Positions 1,661-29,371 of a stretch of 31,620 nucleotides of DNA are shown here, piece after piece. Source of the DNA: a virus. Below the pieces are notes generated by a model. It had not been told where the DNA came from and made no database searches. It worked only from the letters and a program-made list of their open reading frames with translations. Within the stretch, counting starts at the first letter, position 1; every line of letters begins with the position of its first letter. The DNA is taken from positions 1 to 31,620 of the IMG/VR virus record IMGVR_UViG_3300034375_003162; one strand, written 5' to 3'. Both the position numbers and the translations under genes were made by a program.

Positions 1661-1828
1661 CTACTTCTCCTTTGCTTTACCTACATTGATTGCGCACCAA
1701 TCTATAAGTTTGTAGACTTTGCCAATCCAAATGTCATCTTTTGGTGTTGGTGTCAGGGCACAAATAAGCGATGCACCTGAGATAACCCAAGGAGCTAACT
1801 GAATTAATTTTAATGTTAAATCTAACAT
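1661..1828 (-). CDS. 55-residue membrane protein, marine-phage family
   Basis: MLDLTLKLIQLAPWVISGAS is a short membrane-like helix, followed by LICALTPTPKDDIWIGKVY and a second amphipathic helix KLIDWCAINVGKAKEK. The TPTPKDD.. and 'GK.YK.I' pattern recurs in small ORFs near lysis genes of marine phages, so I treat it as real although it is short. TGGAG lies eight bases before the ATG. The stop touches the nuclease ATG at 1660, so it is translationally coupled. It may help holin function, but this is not demonstrated. Confidence 0.65.
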   Translation of the reverse strand: MLDLTLKLIQLAPWVISGASLICALTPTPKDDIWIGKVYKLIDWCAINVGKAKEK

Positions 1829-1884
1829 ATATATTCTCCATTATGTTCCTCCTTGAACTAGTTTATTTACCTAAGTTTAACAGA

Positions 1885-8121: not shown

Positions 8122-8319
8122 CTAAGAAAAGACCCTATCAATACCGCTTGCCGCTATGATTAAAAGATACAAACCTATTATGTATTTAGTAAATTTTGCA
8201 TCCATAGCATCAAACTTAGCATCACCTTTATCCAAACGCTTTTCTATGTTTTCATAACGCATAGCGCATTCTTTTTCGTGTGCTGATATTTTTGCCATTG
8301 ATTCTTTTGCTGTAGCCAT
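8122..8319 (-). CDS. Coiled-coil plus C-terminal TM protein (65 aa)
   Basis: Residues 1-44 are a charged heptad-like coiled coil (MRYENIEKRLDKGDAKFD), then YIIGLYLLIIAASGI is a single C-terminal membrane span. This topology, with a soluble helix at the N-terminus and a TM anchor, is shared with XhlA-type haemolysin/holin accessory proteins. It lies one base from the last fibre gene and next to the lysis-related genes below, so a holin or holin-regulator role is reasonable, yet a single span makes it a less typical holin than the two-span protein at 891-1277. I give the role as inference. Confidence 0.65.
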   Translation of the reverse strand: MATAKESMAKISAHEKECAMRYENIEKRLDKGDAKFDAMDAKFTKYIIGLYLLIIAASGIDRVFS

Positions 8320-8320
8320 A

Positions 8321-9976
8321 TTAATACCTTATTAAAATTGTTCCATTACCGCCGTCGCCTGATTTGTTAGTATAATTGGCATAACCAACATTTGATTGTC
8401 CACCACCACCTCCGCCGGTTGTGTCAGTAGCATTAAGACCAGTCTGCACTGATACGTCGGTAGCATGATATACACCACCATCACCGCCACCGCCTATACC
8501 ACCAGATGCGCGTGATCCTGGGTTTTGGTTACTACCGCCGCCTCCACCGCCACCGAAGTAGCCACTTTCTCCATAAGCAGTAAAGTTTGAAAATAATTGC
8601 CCTGCACCACCTGCACCACCACCTGATGTTTGTCCAGAAGTATTACTATATCCTGGTAAGCCCGCACCTCCGGCTCCACCTCCACCACCACCGTTATAGT
8701 TTCCACCGCCAGTGCCATTTATATGAGCTCCCCCTGCGTTACCATACGAAGTCCAACCTGAAAATGTTCCTTGATTTGAAGCTCCACCACTCAGATTATT
8801 CCAAGACCCACCACCACCTGAGCCACCAGCTGAAGCTGGAAAGTAAGAGGTACTAAATCCTGAAAGATGAGGAGCATTACCACCATAACCACCAGCTCCA
8901 CCGCCACCTTTAGCAGTGATTGTGCCACCAGAGAGTGCAAATGTAGTATCTCCTCCATTGTTATAACCACCATCATATGCTAAAGGAGAGATACCAACAC
9001 CGTCTCCACCTGCGCCTACTGCATAAGCAACGCCTGAAGATTTATCGGTTGATGTAAAAGTATAAGATGATCTATGAACTATTCCACCCGCACCGCCACC
9101 ACCAGTAGCAATATTAGGTGATCTTGAACCAGAGGCTCCACCCGCTACAATTAGTATTTCTGCACTATCTATTCCTGAAGGAACTGACCAAGTACCAGAA
9201 CCAGAAAGCTGAGCATATAGATAAGGTCGTACTGTTAGTGTGTATGTTCTCTCTGCAGTATTTACACCATCTGTTGCTTCAACTGTAAATGTGGTTGTAA
9301 CTGATGATCCTGTGGTTGGTGTAGTACCACTAAATACTCCACTTGTGCTCATACTTACTCCACTTGGAAGAGATGAGCCAGATTTAAGAGTGATTGATAC
9401 CGATTGTCCATCACCATCTGTTGCTGTTATTTGTGTAAATGCTGATGCAGCTGTTCCTTCAATTACTGTACCTAAAGAACCTGAAGCAACTCCAAAAGCA
9501 GGAGTTGAACCAGCATCTAATGCATTTACTAATGTTCCACTGAAATTTCCGGGATTAATAACCTTGATGTCATATGGTTCGTTTGCAACTGTAAGTGCTG
9601 AGCTTGGAGTTGTAGCAGTAATTGTAGTTGTACTATTCACAGTAACAGAAGGAGAGTTATATACTGTTCCATCATCACCTATAAATTGAACAGTTGCTCC
9701 TGTTTTAAAATTAGAACCAGTAATAGTTATGTTGGCATTTGCATCTGTTTCAGTAGTTGGACTAATTGATGTTACTCCCGGAGCGTTTCCAAGAGTTTGC
9801 CAAGCGTCTCCATCATAATATTCCATAACATCTGTAGTAGTATTAAATCTAAACACTCCATCAGCTGGAGAACTTGGTCTTTCAGCCGTGGTTCCTGCGG
9901 GTAGGGTTATGCCTTCTGTACCAGAAAAGGCAATGTTATCAGAGATTAGTTCACTTGGTATTTTTGTGTTTGCCAT
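8321..9976 (-). CDS. Tail fibre with IPT/TIG, Ig-like and glycine-rich domains (551 aa)
   Basis: Following MANTKIPSELI there is a short TERPSSPADGVFRFNTTTD segment, common in phage fibre proteins, then an IPT/TIG domain around residues 70-155 (VTSISPTTETDANANITITG). A He_PIG/cadherin-like region around 160-250 carries LPSGVSMSTSGVFSGTP-like turns. The C-terminal 300 residues start QLSGSGTWSVPSGID, the expected entry of the Gly_rich_2 fold, and continue with long Gly runs and isolated Asn/Tyr, ending NGTILIRY. It resembles the 413-residue fibre in the tip and the 631-residue fibre in the leader, so it looks like a mosaic of both. Receptor-binding is inferred from these domains. Confidence 0.8.
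   Translation of the reverse strand: MANTKIPSELISDNIAFSGTEGITLPAGTTAERPSSPADGVFRFNTTTDVMEYYDGDAWQTLGNAPGVTSISPTTETDANANITITGSNFKTGATVQFIGDDGTVYNSPSVTVNSTTTITATTPSSALTVANEPYDIKVINPGNFSGTLVNALDAGSTPAFGVASGSLGTVIEGTAASAFTQITATDGDGQSVSITLKSGSSLPSGVSMSTSGVFSGTTPTTGSSVTTTFTVEATDGVNTAERTYTLTVRPYLYAQLSGSGTWSVPSGIDSAEILIVAGGASGSRSPNIATGGGGAGGIVHRSSYTFTSTDKSSGVAYAVGAGGDGVGISPLAYDGGYNNGGDTTFALSGGTITAKGGGGAGGYGGNAPHLSGFSTSYFPASAGGSGGGGSWNNLSGGASNQGTFSGWTSYGNAGGAHINGTGGGNYNGGGGGGAGGAGLPGYSNTSGQTSGGGAGGAGQLFSNFTAYGESGYFGGGGGGGSNQNPGSRASGGIGGGGDGGVYHATDVSVQTGLNATDTTGGGGGGQSNVGYANYTNKSGDGGNGTILIRY
9945..9976 (-). repeat. 32-bp direct repeat, copy B (fibre start)
   Basis: This is identical to bases 12093-12124 and covers the ATG and first codons of the 551-residue fibre. 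Recombination between the two copies would delete the 631-residue fibre and the 83-residue gene, leaving an intact leader joined to the 551-residue fibre. Confidence 0.85.
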
Positions 9977-10227
9977 TAGCTGTTATCCGTTAAATAGTGT
10001 TTGCCAGTTGCTATTGCCGTTGTATAACTAGATTTATCAACAGACGAGCCTACTACGTCAGGTTCTGTGTAAGCCAAGATAAGTTCAAGATGGTCTACAT
10101 TGTTTTGAACTGTTTGATTTTTTTCTTCTTGGGTGAGTCCAATAATAGAATATGTACCATTATTAATCTCATTAATAATGTTAACGCTATAAGTTGCTGC
10201 TGTTAGTACTTCTGTTACTGTTTGCAT
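9976..10227 (-). CDS. Small conserved protein between fibres (83 aa)
   Basis: MQTVTEVLTAATYSVNIINE begins a mostly polar helical peptide with a QEEKNQTVQNNVDHLELIL helix and a C-terminal half containing DKSSYTTAIATGKHYL. It has no signal, membrane or catalytic motif. The TAATG at 9976 couples it to the downstream fibre, and its start lies one base past the 631-residue fibre's stop. I believe similar small proteins accompany fibres in marine phages, but I cannot name a family. A chaperone or minor tail function is an inference only. Confidence 0.7.
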   Translation of the reverse strand: MQTVTEVLTAATYSVNIINEINNGTYSIIGLTQEEKNQTVQNNVDHLELILAYTEPDVVGSSVDKSSYTTAIATGKHYLTDNS

Positions 10228-10228
10228 A

Positions 10229-12124
10229 TTATCCCTCTAGAGTTTCAATTCTTGCTGTTAAAGCATCTATCTTATCATCTGCTTCTTGTAATGCTTTGAC
10301 TAGCATTGGTATAAGTGCTGATGGTGAAGCTGTATATACTCCATCCGTTGTTTGTTTAAATATTTCGTGTCCTGCATCACCAGCATCAGCATAGTTTGCA
10401 ATGGTTGATTCTAACTCTTGTGCCAAAAATCCATGTTTGTCTACACCATGTTCTGTAGGTTGTACTCTTTCTTCTGAGCCTTCTTCATAAATAGTAGGAA
10501 ATGTAGAAGAATCAACATCCTTCTTTTTTTTCCACTTAAATTTGACTGGTCTTAAATCATTAATAAAAGATAAACCTAAAGGCTCATTTACGACATCTGT
10601 TTTAAGTCTTTCGTCTGAAGTTCCTGACCAAGATGAACTACCCTGTTGGTTATAAGTTCTGTTAGCGTTACCCCCAAGAGTATTATAACCACTTCCTATA
10701 CCTGTAACTCCATGTCCTATAACATTTTCAGTATTCCCATTACTTGCATGGTTTGTTTGTGCATTATAGCCAATAATTGTATTATGGTAACTACTAGTGA
10801 ATGAACTTCCGCCATAAGCACCAATACAGACATTTTCACTTGATGTGGCTGCATAACCTGCTCTTGACCCATAAAAGGTATTGTAATTAGCATTTGCATA
10901 TCTACCAGCTAATAGACCTATAACAACATTTTCTGTTCCAGTAGTGTTTGCTACAAAAGATTCTTTACCTATTGATACATTATTGTTGCCTGTGGTAGTA
11001 CCAGAACCTGAAGAGTAACCCATTGATGTGTTACCTGCACCTGTGGTGTTTGCTGAAAGTGCAAAATAACCAATTGCTGTGTTGCTATTTGCGGTAGTGT
11101 TAGCATCAAGGGCAGCATAACCAATTCCTATATTATAATTACCTGTGGTGTTTGCATACATTGCATTAGAGCCTATCGCCACATTGGTAGAACCAGTTGT
11201 GTTAAATATCATCGCATAACGACCAATTGACACATTATTATGTGCTGTTGTAGCACCATCTAAAGATGCGTAACCTATAGCCACATTGTTAACACCAGTG
11301 GTACAACTTCTACCAGCAGAAGAACCAAGAGCAACATTTTGTGTTCCTGTAGTGTTTGCAGTTAAAGCAGAAGCTCCAACTGCTGTATTGTGGTTTGCTG
11401 TGGTGTTTGATGATAAAGCACTTCTACCTATTGCAACATTGTTAGCACCTGTAGTGTTAGTTCCTAGTGAAAATTGTCCTACTGCAACTGATAAATCGCC
11501 TGTCGTGTTTGCCAAACCTGCTCTTTCTCCAATAAAAGTATTACTACTTGCAGTAGTGTTTGCAGCACCCGCATCTTTACCCACAAATGTATTTTGAGTT
11601 CCTGTTGTTATTGCAACACCTGCATTATACCCAAGTAAACTATTTCTAATACCTGTGGTAATTGCTGTACCTGCTGCAAAACCAATTGCTGTATTTGCAT
11701 CGCCTTGAGTTAAGGCTGCAAAGACATCTACACCTACACCAGTATTATAATTAGCTGCATCAATTGTACCAGTTGTCGTATCTCCAATCATTATGGAAGA
11801 TGTGCCAAAAGTTTTGAATGCAGGACCACCAGCAGGTGCATCTTCCCAAGCAACTCCGCTACCAGTAGATGTTAGAAGTTGTCCATCTGTGCCTTGACCG
11901 CCGTTGATTTTGAAATTCTGTCCGTCAACCAATGGGCTTGTAACTGAGGTAGCAATCGTTACAGCATTTTCTATCTTTGCCCCTGTAACAGCATCATCAA
12001 CTATAGAAGCTGTTACTACCGCATTAGATGCTAACTTATCTGCGTTCACCGCATCATCTGCAATTTTAGCCGTAGCAATAGCGTCATCTGCTATTAGTTC
12101 ACTTGGTATTTTTGTGTTTGCCAT
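10229..12124 (-). CDS. Tail fibre with 17-residue repeats and S74 chaperone (631 aa)
   Basis: The first 60 residues carry MANTKIPSELI and the 10-residue IADDAV shaft repeats. From residue 155 to 409 there are 15 perfectly phased 17-residue repeats with consensus NTTGxxNVAIGxxALxA, followed by degenerate copies, which is a YadA/Hia-head-like beta roll. The C-terminus starts SDERLKTDV at S503, with K508 five residues on, and continues to a coiled coil (LVKALQEADDKIDALTARIETLEG). This is the S74 endosialidase chaperone family, which trimerises the fibre and cuts itself off with a Ser/Lys dyad. So the mature fibre should end near residue 502. Two Cys occur in the repeats. Confidence 0.85.
   Translation of the reverse strand: MANTKIPSELIADDAIATAKIADDAVNADKLASNAVVTASIVDDAVTGAKIENAVTIATSVTSPLVDGQNFKINGGQGTDGQLLTSTGSGVAWEDAPAGGPAFKTFGTSSIMIGDTTTGTIDAANYNTGVGVDVFAALTQGDANTAIGFAAGTAITTGIRNSLLGYNAGVAITTGTQNTFVGKDAGAANTTASSNTFIGERAGLANTTGDLSVAVGQFSLGTNTTGANNVAIGRSALSSNTTANHNTAVGASALTANTTGTQNVALGSSAGRSCTTGVNNVAIGYASLDGATTAHNNVSIGRYAMIFNTTGSTNVAIGSNAMYANTTGNYNIGIGYAALDANTTANSNTAIGYFALSANTTGAGNTSMGYSSGSGTTTGNNNVSIGKESFVANTTGTENVVIGLLAGRYANANYNTFYGSRAGYAATSSENVCIGAYGGSSFTSSYHNTIIGYNAQTNHASNGNTENVIGHGVTGIGSGYNTLGGNANRTYNQQGSSSWSGTSDERLKTDVVNEPLGLSFINDLRPVKFKWKKKKDVDSSTFPTIYEEGSEERVQPTEHGVDKHGFLAQELESTIANYADAGDAGHEIFKQTTDGVYTASPSALIPMLVKALQEADDKIDALTARIETLEG
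10898..11662 (-). repeat. 15 tandem 51-bp coding repeats in fibre
   Basis: The stretch encodes 15 consecutive 17-residue units in perfect phase (255 residues, 765 bases). The consensus is NTTGxxNVAIGxxALxA; in different copies the first residue is N, I, T, A or C and the fourth may be A. DNA copies are diverged by synonymous changes, so this is an old repeat, though short stretches such as the GTAGTGTTTGC core on the plus strand recur. Copy-number change by unequal recombination would keep the reading frame and alter fibre length in 17-residue steps. Confidence 0.85.
12093..12124 (-). repeat. 32-bp direct repeat, copy A (fibre start)
   Basis: This is identical over 32 bases to 9945-9976 and in both places covers the ATG and first codons (MANTKIPSEL) of a fibre gene. 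The identity stops right after these codons and right at the ATG, so it defines a discrete block. The fibre gene at 12576-13817 has a diverged version of the same leader. It may be a virion-attachment peptide under selection, or a site for homologous exchange of fibre bodies. Confidence 0.85.
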
Positions 12125-12125
12125 G

Positions 12126-12218
12126 TTATTTAAACCTTATCCATTCAGAAGCATCTATGTCTAAATTTATTGTTACTAAATTAAAAATTACTAATATTAT
12201 TAATAAAAATTCAATCAT
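12126..12218 (-). CDS. 30-residue single-TM micro-ORF
   Basis: The ATG at 12218 overlaps the previous TGA in an ATGA junction and the TAA at 12126 comes just before the next fibre ATG at 12124, so this ORF exactly fills the space between two confirmed genes. The peptide MIEFLLIILVIFNLVTINLD has an uninterrupted hydrophobic span from residue 4 to 19 and a short polar end DIDASEWIRFK. It could sit in the inner membrane. Without homologues it may be a coincidence of an AT-rich gap, but the precise junctions favour translation. No function is proposed. Confidence 0.5.
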   Translation of the reverse strand: MIEFLLIILVIFNLVTINLDIDASEWIRFK

Positions 12219-12574
12219 TCCCACTCTCCGCTTGATTCATTCCATGTTGTTTTAGACTCATCACTCGGATGTCCTATAGGTGAATCCCATGCATTTAATT
12301 CATTATTCCAAACCCAACTTGCATGAGGTTTCGGAGGATAAAATCTATTATCCGAAGGACTCCAGTCCCATCCTGGACTAGGTAGACATCCTCGAATATT
12401 TCCATTATATGAACATTGTATCCAGTTCGCATCAGAATCATTATGTACTGTTCTTAAAAATTCTACACCTAGTGATTCTTGCTCATCTCCGTTTACATCT
12501 CTTATAACAGCGTTTTCAACAACCGCTATTTGTATAACGATATTATTTTCATTTAGTTTTGCAAAGTGTGCCAT
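12215..12574 (-). CDS. Conserved Trp-rich small protein (119 aa)
   Basis: I start at 12574 (MAHFAKLNENNIVIQIAVV), one base after the fibre stop; an in-frame ATG at 12628 would be inside the fibre gene and the extra residues do not look conserved. The start MAHFAKLNENN, the central WIQCSYNGNIRG and the aromatic C-terminus (WDWSPSDNRFYPPKPHASW, then WNESSGEWE) form a family I know from cyanophage and pelagiphage tail regions. There is no signal peptide or membrane span. Its stop overlaps the start of a 30-residue membrane peptide in ATGA. The function is unknown; position between two fibre genes suggests a fibre-assembly or minor tail role. Confidence 0.8.
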   Translation of the reverse strand: MAHFAKLNENNIVIQIAVVENAVIRDVNGDEQESLGVEFLRTVHNDSDANWIQCSYNGNIRGCLPSPGWDWSPSDNRFYPPKPHASWVWNNELNAWDSPIGHPSDESKTTWNESSGEWE

Positions 12575-12575
12575 A

Positions 12576-13817
12576 TTAACTCGTATATGTTCCTGTTCCT
12601 GTAAATTTAATAACTGTAAAACTACCATCTGTTGTAACAGTGGGTGAACCTGATGTTGTGCCTGAATAGTTTGCAGTTGGGACTCTTAATATCACTAACC
12701 CTGAGCCACCGCTACCACCTGCATTACCACCGCCTGCAGCTTTTGATGCTGCTCCGCCACCGCCACCTGTGTTAGCTGTTCCTGATACACCAATTCCATT
12801 TGCATTGTTTTCAGCATCTCCTGCTGTACCGCCACCACCATTACCGCCTGCACCTTTTACATAACCGCCAGTGTTGGTTTCTCCACCACCACCACCGCCA
12901 CCTGCGTAGTATGTTGATGTTCCTGTTATAGAGGATGTACCACCTACTCCGCCCGTTCCACCTGTATTGTTTCCACCATTACCGCCTGCAGCACCTTTTC
13001 CGCCACCGCCACCGCCAATGATTACACCTGAACTAGATTTGTTACCGCCGTCATTACCTTGTCCTGATGTTCCGCTTCCTGCACCGTTAACACTACCTTC
13101 GCCACCACCTGAACCACCATTTAATGTTCCTGTAGATTGTCCACCACCACCACCGCCACCAGTTGATGTGACTGTTGTTAGACCTGAGCCTGCTAAAGAT
13201 GAGTTTGACCCTGCTGCACCTACGCTGTGAAAAGAATATGCACCTGCACCACCTGCTCCTATTGTTGCTGTAAATTGTATTCCTGCAGCAGTTGAGTGCG
13301 TGCCTGTTAACATACCACCTGCACCACCGCCACCCATAACTGAACTATATTGACCACAACCTGCTCCACCGCCTGCAACTACAAGATACGACATTGTATA
13401 TGGGGCAAATATATTTCCACTTCCACCACCAACATTAAACCAATCATTAGCATCTGTAGTAGCTGTGATACATACATAAACTTCACCGCTTGTAGAATTA
13501 ATCCAAAGTGAACCCACACCACCTGATGGGTTAGTATCAACTGCAGGGTCAGATGCATTTACAGTTGCATTGCTTAGATCATTTATGCCTAAAGCATTTG
13601 CTGCAATCTGTGCAGCACCAACGGCATCATCAGCAATCTTGGCTTGGGTAACAGCATCATCTGCCATGGAAGCTGTAACAACAGCATTTGAAGCTAATTG
13701 GTCTGCACCAACCGCATCATCTGCAATAGTTGCACTTGTAATAGCATCATCCGCAATCGCTGCAGTGGTTACTGCATCATCTGCTATAACTCTTGATGTG
13801 ATCTTGGTGTTTGCCAT
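12576..13817 (-). CDS. Tail fibre with MANTKI leader and glycine-rich tip (413 aa)
   Basis: After MANTKITSRVI comes a run of 10-residue repeats (DDAVTTAAIA, DDAITSATIA, DDAVGADQLA and so on) up to about residue 75, likely a trimeric shaft. A short segment GSLWINSTSGEVYVCI follows and may be a turn that passes to the distal domain. The C-terminal two thirds is dominated by Gly-rich runs (GGGGGGG, GGAGGNGGG), ending GGSGLVILRVPTANYSG. Gly-rich tips of this sort (Gly_rich_2-like, or polyglycine-II sandwich as in gp38 of phage S16) bind bacterial surface receptors. The leader is shared with the fibres at 10229 and 8321. Receptor-binding is a strong inference. Confidence 0.8.
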   Translation of the reverse strand: MANTKITSRVIADDAVTTAAIADDAITSATIADDAVGADQLASNAVVTASMADDAVTQAKIADDAVGAAQIAANALGINDLSNATVNASDPAVDTNPSGGVGSLWINSTSGEVYVCITATTDANDWFNVGGGSGNIFAPYTMSYLVVAGGGAGCGQYSSVMGGGGAGGMLTGTHSTAAGIQFTATIGAGGAGAYSFHSVGAAGSNSSLAGSGLTTVTSTGGGGGGGQSTGTLNGGSGGGEGSVNGAGSGTSGQGNDGGNKSSSGVIIGGGGGGKGAAGGNGGNNTGGTGGVGGTSSITGTSTYYAGGGGGGGETNTGGYVKGAGGNGGGGTAGDAENNANGIGVSGTANTGGGGGAASKAAGGGNAGGSGGSGLVILRVPTANYSGTTSGSPTVTTDGSFTVIKFTGTGTYTS

Positions 13818-28266: not shown

Positions 28267-28710
28267 TTATAACTCTTTTCTAAATGTCGATGTGACTAAT
28301 TTAAAATCAAATTTCTCAGCGGTCTTTTTCCACCCCTGTCTACTGGATTCAAATTCTATTGCGACAGCATTTAATGTTTCTGCCAACCGTTCTAAAAAGT
28401 CAAATCCTACTTTTATATAATTATACTCTGGTTTTTGATAACTTGCCCAGACAAAAAGGGTTCCAACGCCACTTGGATCTGTTACAAACTGTGTTATAAC
28501 AAAACCTATGTATTGATCCCCTTTATAAAACATATATAAAGTTGAATCGCCCTCTCTTAGGGATAGGTAAACGTCAGCTACGATCCAATCAGAATAGCTT
28601 TTCTTTCTAATCTTTTGTAGATGTGGTTCAATTTTTTCAAAAGAATACTTGAGCTCATTTTGAGGGATCTGTTCAATCGAAACCCCATCAATAGTCAATC
28701 TCTGAACCAT
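28267..28710 (-). CDS. GNAT-fold virion-associated protein, T7 gp13-like
   Basis: I choose the ATG at 28710 (MVQRLTIDG, 147 residues). An ATG at 28749 would enlarge the overlap with the upstream gene and add an unconvincing leader, while 28710 has AAAAGG about 12 bases upstream. The strand-turn pattern STLYMFYKGDQYIGFVITQF, then GTLFVWASYQK and a helix before FESSRQGWKKTAEKFDFKLV, matches the central beta-sheet and C-terminus of GNAT acetyltransferases. T7 gp13, whose Pfam family belongs to the GNAT superfamily, occupies the same place ahead of the ejection proteins. I infer a virion-assembly role; acetyltransferase activity is not established. Confidence 0.7.
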   Translation of the reverse strand: MVQRLTIDGVSIEQIPQNELKYSFEKIEPHLQKIRKKSYSDWIVADVYLSLREGDSTLYMFYKGDQYIGFVITQFVTDPSGVGTLFVWASYQKPEYNYIKVGFDFLERLAETLNAVAIEFESSRQGWKKTAEKFDFKLVTSTFRKEL

Positions 28711-29371
28711 ATCGCTTATACCTTTTACGCGGAGACAATCCAACCCCACGGTATTTTACTAATCTACGTACACCTAAATCACCGCTGCGTGCTCGTTGTT
28801 CTGCTTGAGTTACTTCTTGATTGAATAAACCTAAGTAATCTGCAGCTGCACGCGGGTCAGTCCAATCTCTTGCTGGAATCCTTAACAACCTATATAAGGT
28901 GCCATATATAATTCCATCTCGATAATCATTTGAAAAATCAGTACTTATGTTGTTTGAAGTTCTAGTTGGTTTTAAGGCCACACTTACTTGTAAACCATTT
29001 GTAACTGATGAATTAGGAACTGGTACAACCCAAAAAGTATCCGGTGTTTTTTGTAAGTAAACTTGGGGTAAAGATGTTTTGTTTCTCCAATCGGGATAGT
29101 TCAATTCTAAACTTCTTGGGCTAGTTGGATCTAAATCATCTCCATCATAGGTCATCCATAAAATTTTGTGGACATCGGTACCTGCAGGTTGATCAAACTC
29201 ATATTCATACACACCGCTTATGGTTGTAATAGGGTCAAGATCAAATACATATGCACCAGAACGTTCACACAATTCTATAGTTGCTGATCTGAGAGTAGAC
29301 TCAACTAAAGAGTCTGGACAATTAGGAACGTAGGGTAAAACTTCTTTAACTAAAGAACTAAAATTTGCCAT
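28688..29371 (-). CDS. Second adaptor / head-tail connector-like protein (227 aa)
   Basis: It starts MANFSSLVKEVLPYVPNCPD followed by LVESTLRSATIELCERSG, a helical N-terminus common in phage proteins that follow an adaptor gene. A beta-strand region then includes PDTFWVVPVPN and a helical end contains DYRDGIIYGTLYRLLRIPARDW and FNQEVTQAEQRARSG. That last pattern, an aromatic-rich helix followed by a long charged helix, is shared with many short-tailed phage connector proteins. Translation is probably coupled to the preceding gene through TAATG at 29371. The C-terminal 22 bases overlap the next gene. I infer a connector role from its place between the first adaptor and the ejection genes. Confidence 0.7.
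   Translation of the reverse strand: MANFSSLVKEVLPYVPNCPDSLVESTLRSATIELCERSGAYVFDLDPITTISGVYEYEFDQPAGTDVHKILWMTYDGDDLDPTSPRSLELNYPDWRNKTSLPQVYLQKTPDTFWVVPVPNSSVTNGLQVSVALKPTRTSNNISTDFSNDYRDGIIYGTLYRLLRIPARDWTDPRAAADYLGLFNQEVTQAEQRARSGDLGVRRLVKYRGVGLSPRKRYKRYGSEIDY

What the first reader, a model, noticed from the sequence alone, without database searches (positions are those of the whole stretch)
12126..12218. 30-residue membrane micro-ORF joined by ATGA
An ORF too short for usual gene calling fits exactly between two real genes, its ATG overlapping the preceding TGA and its TAA one base before the next ATG. It encodes a 16-residue hydrophobic span and a polar tail. Phage micro-proteins of this type can block superinfection, regulate lysis or disturb membranes. 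AT-rich DNA readily encodes hydrophobic residues, so chance cannot be ruled out.
Basis: partly seen in the sequence, partly recalled or inferred. Interest (0 to 1): 0.5.

Follow-up and report, generated by a model that had tools for sequence, protein, structure and literature searches.

The report
Tiny coupled phage membrane-protein gene candidate
A probably marine phage fits a 30-codon gene candidate for a small membrane protein exactly between two genes of its tail-fibre cluster; it is likely translated, was found in only one other distinct virus, and is a very small example of an ordinary kind of phage gene.

Summary
On the minus strand, 12218-12126 encodes MIEFLLIILVIFNLVTINLDIDASEWIRFK; its ATG overlaps the stop of a 119-aa gene (ATGA) and its TAA lies one base before the ATG of a 631-aa S74-type fibre gene. 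It is probably a real gene: strongest anti-Shine-Dalgarno pairing of 32 starts compared; ATGA-coupled exact-fit ORFs fill 3 of 129 long gaps (this one included) against 0.12 in shuffles; 2.8% of shuffles stay open and 0.9% of those are as hydrophobic; no promoter, terminator or RNA fold explains the gap. One diverged relative, L006, keeps SD, start, stop and 28 of 30 residues although a different gene follows there. Against: codon usage unlike this phage's genes, and an antisense frame scores the same; no further homologue; 3 substitutions cannot show selection; the weak SD of the fibre gene does not prove coupling. Best reading: a translated, lineage-specific membrane micro-gene that also keeps ribosomes running towards the next gene. 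Superinfection or lysis roles have no evidence here. Ordinary in kind; modest interest.

The parts
12126..12218 (-). Micro-ORF, 30 codons, one predicted membrane span (about residues 4-19) and a polar tail DIDASEWIRFK
12219..12230 (-). Shine-Dalgarno-like stretch CGGAGAGTGGGA inside the end of the preceding gene; GGAG lies 7 nt before the ATG (by eye); unchanged in L006
   Evidence: duplex energy -10.2 kcal/mol, strongest of 32 starts; 0.8% of 3000 random positions as strong; identical in L006
12215..12574 (-). Preceding gene, 119 aa, PHROG 7759 (unknown function), in the tail-fibre cluster; its stop overlaps the micro-ORF start
10229..12124 (-). Following gene, 631-aa tail fibre/spike with C-terminal Peptidase_S74 chaperone domain; weak SD (-4.7), start one base after the micro-ORF stop
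12576..13817 (-). Glycine-rich fibre gene (MANTKI start) upstream in the same tight cluster
9976..10227 (-). 83-aa gene after the S74 fibre; its TAIATG...S end resembles the end of the 16-codon ORF that follows the micro-ORF in L006 (by eye)

Best explanation
A translated micro-gene inserted in the tail-fibre cluster of a probably marine tailed phage. Shown: ribosomes ending the 119-aa PHROG 7759 gene would meet an overlapping ATG with a strong SD, and the 30-codon frame ends one base before the fibre start. Inferred: termination-reinitiation makes a single-span membrane peptide in step with the late structural genes, and the terminating ribosome can pass on to the fibre gene, so the ORF both makes a membrane peptide and bridges what would otherwise be a 90-nt untranslated break. 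The peptide most likely sits in the host inner membrane late in infection; what it does there is not determined.
For: Exact fit on both sides. Strongest SD of 32 starts. Spacing of +1 or -1 at the 5 other junctions of the cluster from 13819 to 8319. Enrichment of such ORFs over shuffles and hydrophobicity beyond composition. L015 and L024 place a 7759-like gene (by eye) directly against the fibre start, without a gap. L006 keeps SD, start, stop, 102 of 105 bases and 28 of 30 residues, while positions 121-344 of the gene upstream differ at 78 of 224 sites, and keeps the ORF although a different gene follows. No promoter or terminator pattern, no stable fold, no Rfam match near a curated threshold in the gap. 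The only longer gap in the window (1661-1884) also holds a small gene with a PHROG match.
Against: Codon score below 99% of equal-length pieces of this phage's genes (-0.21 against mean 0.23, sd 0.17), though above out-of-frame pieces (-0.81, sd 0.31); one antisense frame scores the same (-0.22), so the score does not single out this frame; the synonymous-codon score is also low. G+C is 13-23% by codon position against 39% for the window. Only one diverged relative; 2 of its 3 changes alter residues and make the span more polar (best 16-residue mean 2.42). Three random substitutions would leave the frame intact 72% of the time; divergence is not lower than in the first 120 bases of the gene upstream (3 of 105 against 9 of 120, p=0.15) and the glycine-rich fibre is 95% identical over 1,153 bases. 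The fibre's weak SD (-4.7) fits coupled starts in relatives (39.5% of 301 as weak), but starts 61-180 nt from a stop, the class it would belong to if the micro-ORF were silent, are equally often as weak (38.5% of 65), so the bridge part rests on spacing alone. No expression data.
Confidence: 0.5

Rival explanations
1. Cis-only translational bridge: the ORF is translated, but the peptide has no function; translation carries ribosomes across the gap to the fibre start.
For: Strong SD at the micro-ORF, weak SD and +1 spacing at the fibre. L015 and L024 couple the two kinds of gene directly. Starts -4..3 nt from a stop have weaker SDs (median -5.9, n=301) than starts 8-60 nt away (median -7.0, n=281; p=2.5e-11).
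Against: A bridge needs no hydrophobic span, yet the span exceeds what composition gives. In L006 the ORF persists although no fibre follows it, though that change could be recent. Starts 61-180 nt from a stop have a median of -5.8 (n=65), no stronger than coupled starts.
Confidence: 0.16
2. Not a gene: a spacer or recombination scar in a mosaic fibre cluster, open by chance.
For: Unusual codon usage and composition, and an antisense frame that scores as well; in IMG/VR only two records besides the window carry it by four pattern scans, one of them identical to the window over 9,886 bases; L006 shows that this cluster leaves short chimeric ORFs at such junctions (16-codon MANT...TAIATG ORF).
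Against: Joint fit of SD, ATGA, open frame, exact end and span; enrichment over shuffles; frame intact in L006.
Confidence: 0.22
3. A membrane effector of superinfection exclusion or lysis timing, as the first reader suggested (a sharper form of the best explanation).
For: Single short span; late-gene context; small phage membrane proteins with such roles are known (recalled, from no call).
Against: No match to any such protein; not next to the lysozyme, the spanins or the 65-aa gene with a C-terminal span.
Confidence: 0.07

Closest known systems
Small genes predicted in phage genomes (Fremin, Bhatt and Kyrpides 2022, seen only as a reference in PMC11323111) and phage small proteins reviewed in PMC11323111 (passages seen)
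   Same: Short phage ORF without known function, below usual gene-calling size
   Different: This 30-aa sequence matched no family searched; whether it is in that catalogue was not checked (paper not held)
ATGA overlapping gene pairs with termination-reinitiation (Huber et al. 2019, PMC6728339, abstract seen)
   Same: Overlapping stop and start, SD inside the upstream gene
   Different: The downstream partner here is only 30 codons and itself abuts a third gene; coupling not measured
Filamentous phage pVII and pIX (33 and 32 residues; PMC10480500, passages seen)
   Same: About 30 residues, one hydrophobic segment, no signal peptide
   Different: Those are virion caps of ssDNA phages; no kinship tested or implied; this lies in a tailed-phage fibre cluster
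Regulatory minigenes (axe-txe, PMC8708949, abstract seen)
   Same: A tiny ORF whose translation in cis raises expression of a following gene
   Different: Two codons there, 30 codons with a hydrophobic span here

Membership tests
Translated phage small membrane protein gene | Start with a ribosome binding site | tested here: met
   SD strongest of 32 starts (the energy ignores spacing; by eye GGAG is 7 nt before the ATG)
Translated phage small membrane protein gene | Frame, start and stop kept in relatives | tested here: inconclusive
   Kept in L006, the only diverged relative; only 3 substitutions, and 72% of such triples would leave the ORF intact
Translated phage small membrane protein gene | Membrane-spanning hydrophobic segment beyond composition | tested here: met
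   Best 16-residue mean 2.75; 0.94% of open shuffles reach it; 2.42 in L006. No dedicated membrane-span predictor was run
Translated phage small membrane protein gene | Coding-like codon usage | tested here: not met
   Below 99% of gene pieces and equal to an antisense frame; 30 codons give little power. For this reason the claim stays at 'probable gene'
Translated phage small membrane protein gene | Peptide detected | not testable with these tools
   No expression data
Termination-reinitiation pair (ATGA) | Stop and start overlap as ATGA | tested here: met
Termination-reinitiation pair (ATGA) | Downstream translation depends on upstream translation | not testable with these tools
   Needs reporter fusions
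Superinfection-exclusion or lysis protein | Homology to a known family | tested here: not met
   No Pfam match at E 0.001, no PHROG match to E 10, no tblastn match to E 10 in phages

The most novel reading that the evidence does not exclude
A membrane micro-protein wired by stop-start coupling on both sides into a tail-fibre cluster, made in step with the host-recognition proteins and acting as their partner at the membrane, for example by excluding phages that use the same receptor; it would travel with the fibre block during recombination.
Probability: 0.07. Interest if true: 0.6.

Novelty: new member of a known kind. Interest (0 to 1): 0.27.

Why it matters
If translated, it is a clean example of a gene too short for usual gene calling in a phage tail-fibre cluster, and it offers a simple test of whether such ORFs matter for their peptide or only for keeping ribosomes moving to the next gene.

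Tried and rejected
RNA element: no promoter or terminator pattern in 11900-12800 (0 found; 3.3 and 0.6 expected in shuffles); 191 of 200 shuffles fold at least as well as 12080-12260; one Rfam match at E 0.64, far below its threshold and on the other strand. Homologues: tblastn of the peptide in 50,697 phage records to E 10, no match; tblastn and blastn against the 195 sequences then on file: among the best 60 and 30 rows shown, the clear matches were the window, its twin contig and L006's record; the short AT-rich matches in L145 and L126 were read, the first lies inside a longer open frame and the second where another frame is open; 49 whole virus records by DNA (50 handles given, of 194 loci then held): L006's record, and short matches at E 0.009 or worse in 7 others. 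The IDASEWI pattern scan of IMG/VR gave 11 stretches, 9 of them unrelated by eye. The genome collection held no match to one DIDASEWIR pattern. A frameshift fusion of the 119-aa protein to the span was considered: no canonical slippery heptamer by eye, not pursued. L010 has an ATGA-start 33-aa ORF after its 7759 gene, but it is not hydrophobic by eye and runs into the next gene; treated as chance. The SD comparison in relatives was meant to test the bridge: it separates coupled starts from those 8-60 nt away, but not from those 61-180 nt away (and 3 of 3 MAN/MAT starts in that class are weak), so it decides nothing for a 90-nt gap. That class may itself hold unseen small genes, since ORFs under 90 aa were not called. 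Paper searches (listings only, apart from the papers named above) listed nothing on this ORF.

Rows dropped or chosen: gene 28267-28749 (start unsure) was left out of the SD comparison. In one search loci L001-L005, L013, L034, L039, L120 and L195-L198 (mostly copies of the window's or L006's stretch) were left out, the window, L006 and L085 kept; the same loci and the window were left out. Gene starts were the longest ORF starts, except 12574, which I chose by its MAHFAKL start.

Full report
What is there. The window is a 31,620-base virus record: a piece of a tailed-phage genome with a major head protein, tail fibres, a lysozyme and overlapping spanins on the minus strand. Its DNA and proteins are nearest to Pelagibacter, Synechococcus and other mostly marine phage records, so it is probably marine. 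The micro-ORF (12218-12126, minus) lies in a cluster of fibre genes: glycine-rich fibre (13817-12576), PHROG 7759 gene (12574-12215), micro-ORF, S74 fibre (12124-10229), 83-aa gene (10227-9976), second glycine-rich fibre (9976-8321).

Is it a gene? Four features fit. (1) Spacing: the other five junctions from 13819 to 8319 have stop and start at +1 or -1; the micro-ORF's stop keeps this spacing to the fibre, and its start overlaps the 119-aa gene's stop. Without it the junction would be a 90-nt gap, second longest of 31 junctions in my list. The longest gap (1661-1884) also holds a small gene, 1828-1661, 55 aa, matching phrog_9685 at 4.8e-10 and 104 phage records. (2) SD: CGGAGAGTGGGA pairs with the anti-SD at -10.2 kcal/mol, strongest of 32 starts; 0.8% of 3000 random positions reach it. 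The energy ignores spacing; by eye GGAG is 7 nt from the ATG. (3) Chance: 2.8% of 200,000 shuffles stay open and 0.94% of those are as hydrophobic; in 129 long gaps from the window and relatives, 3 ATGA-coupled exact-fit ORFs were found, this one included, against 0.12 in shuffles. (4) No promoter, terminator, stable fold or RNA family explains the gap.

Against. The codon score is below 99% of 29-codon pieces of the phage's own genes, about two standard deviations above out-of-frame pieces, and equal to that of one antisense frame; the synonymous score is low. The ORF is far richer in A+T than the genome. With 30 codons of a hydrophobic peptide the test has little power, but it counts against.

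Relatives. Four pattern scans of IMG/VR and a relative search with the upstream protein find the micro-ORF in two records besides the window: one identical over 9,886 bases (L005) and one diverged (L006). L006 keeps the SD, ATG, TAA and 102 of 105 bases; of 3 changes 1 is synonymous, and I8T and L19S make the span more polar. Positions 121-344 of the upstream gene differ at 78 of 224 sites, its first 120 at 9 of 120 (not different from the micro-ORF stretch, p=0.15), and the glycine-rich fibre is 95% identical over 1,153 bases. So the micro-ORF sits in a recently shared block, and its low divergence is not evidence of selection on its own.

The order of genes differs in L006. No fibre follows the micro-ORF there: after it comes a 16-codon ORF that looks like a fibre's MANT start joined to the end of an 83-aa-type gene (by eye), then a 161-aa gene of phrog_1544. 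A stretch related to the window's S74 fibre, and a 99-aa relative of the 83-aa gene, lie upstream in L006 instead. Of the 8 loci with the upstream gene, L005 and L006 have the micro-ORF and 6 do not, one of these (L011) ending soon after the gene. L015 and L024, found through the fibre, have a 7759-like gene (by eye) directly against the fibre start.

Mechanism. ATGA coupling is established for cellular genes (PMC6728339 abstract). In relatives' loci, starts close to a preceding stop have weaker SDs (median -5.9, n=301) than starts 8-60 nt away (median -7.0, n=281), and MAN/MAT-starting genes show the same (-4.1 for 47, -6.45 for 20). But starts 61-180 nt away have a median of -5.8 (n=65; for MAN/MAT starts -3.2, n=3), so the fibre's -4.7 does not tell whether the 90 bases before it are translated. 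That ribosomes reach the fibre by finishing the micro-ORF is therefore an inference from spacing. The peptide would be a single-span membrane protein. Its function is not shown; the superinfection and lysis ideas remain possible without evidence here.

Comparison and verdict. It resembles other phage small proteins (PMC11323111 passages) and is about the size of filamentous-phage pVII and pIX (PMC10480500 passages), with no implied kinship. I file it as a probable new member of a known kind: an overlooked phage membrane micro-gene. Interest is modest.

Noticed in passing
window 1661-1828 (-): A 55-aa small gene with a hydrophobic stretch (by eye) in the longest gap, abutting the next ATG at 1660; phrog_9685 (unknown function), matches in 104 phage records, 101 of them Vibrio phages.
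   Followed up: partly
L006 5451-5501: A 16-codon ORF (MANTAIATGKTYISAN) that looks like a fibre start joined to the end of an 83-aa-type gene: a likely rearrangement scar in this mosaic cluster.
   Followed up: partly
window 12093-12124 and 9945-9976 (-): A 32-base perfect repeat at the start of two different fibre genes, a possible recombination point for swapping fibres.
   Followed up: no
window 8122-8319 (-): 65-aa ORF with a charged N-terminal part and a C-terminal hydrophobic span, two genes before the lysozyme; holin-like by eye, no PHROG match at E 0.001.
   Followed up: no
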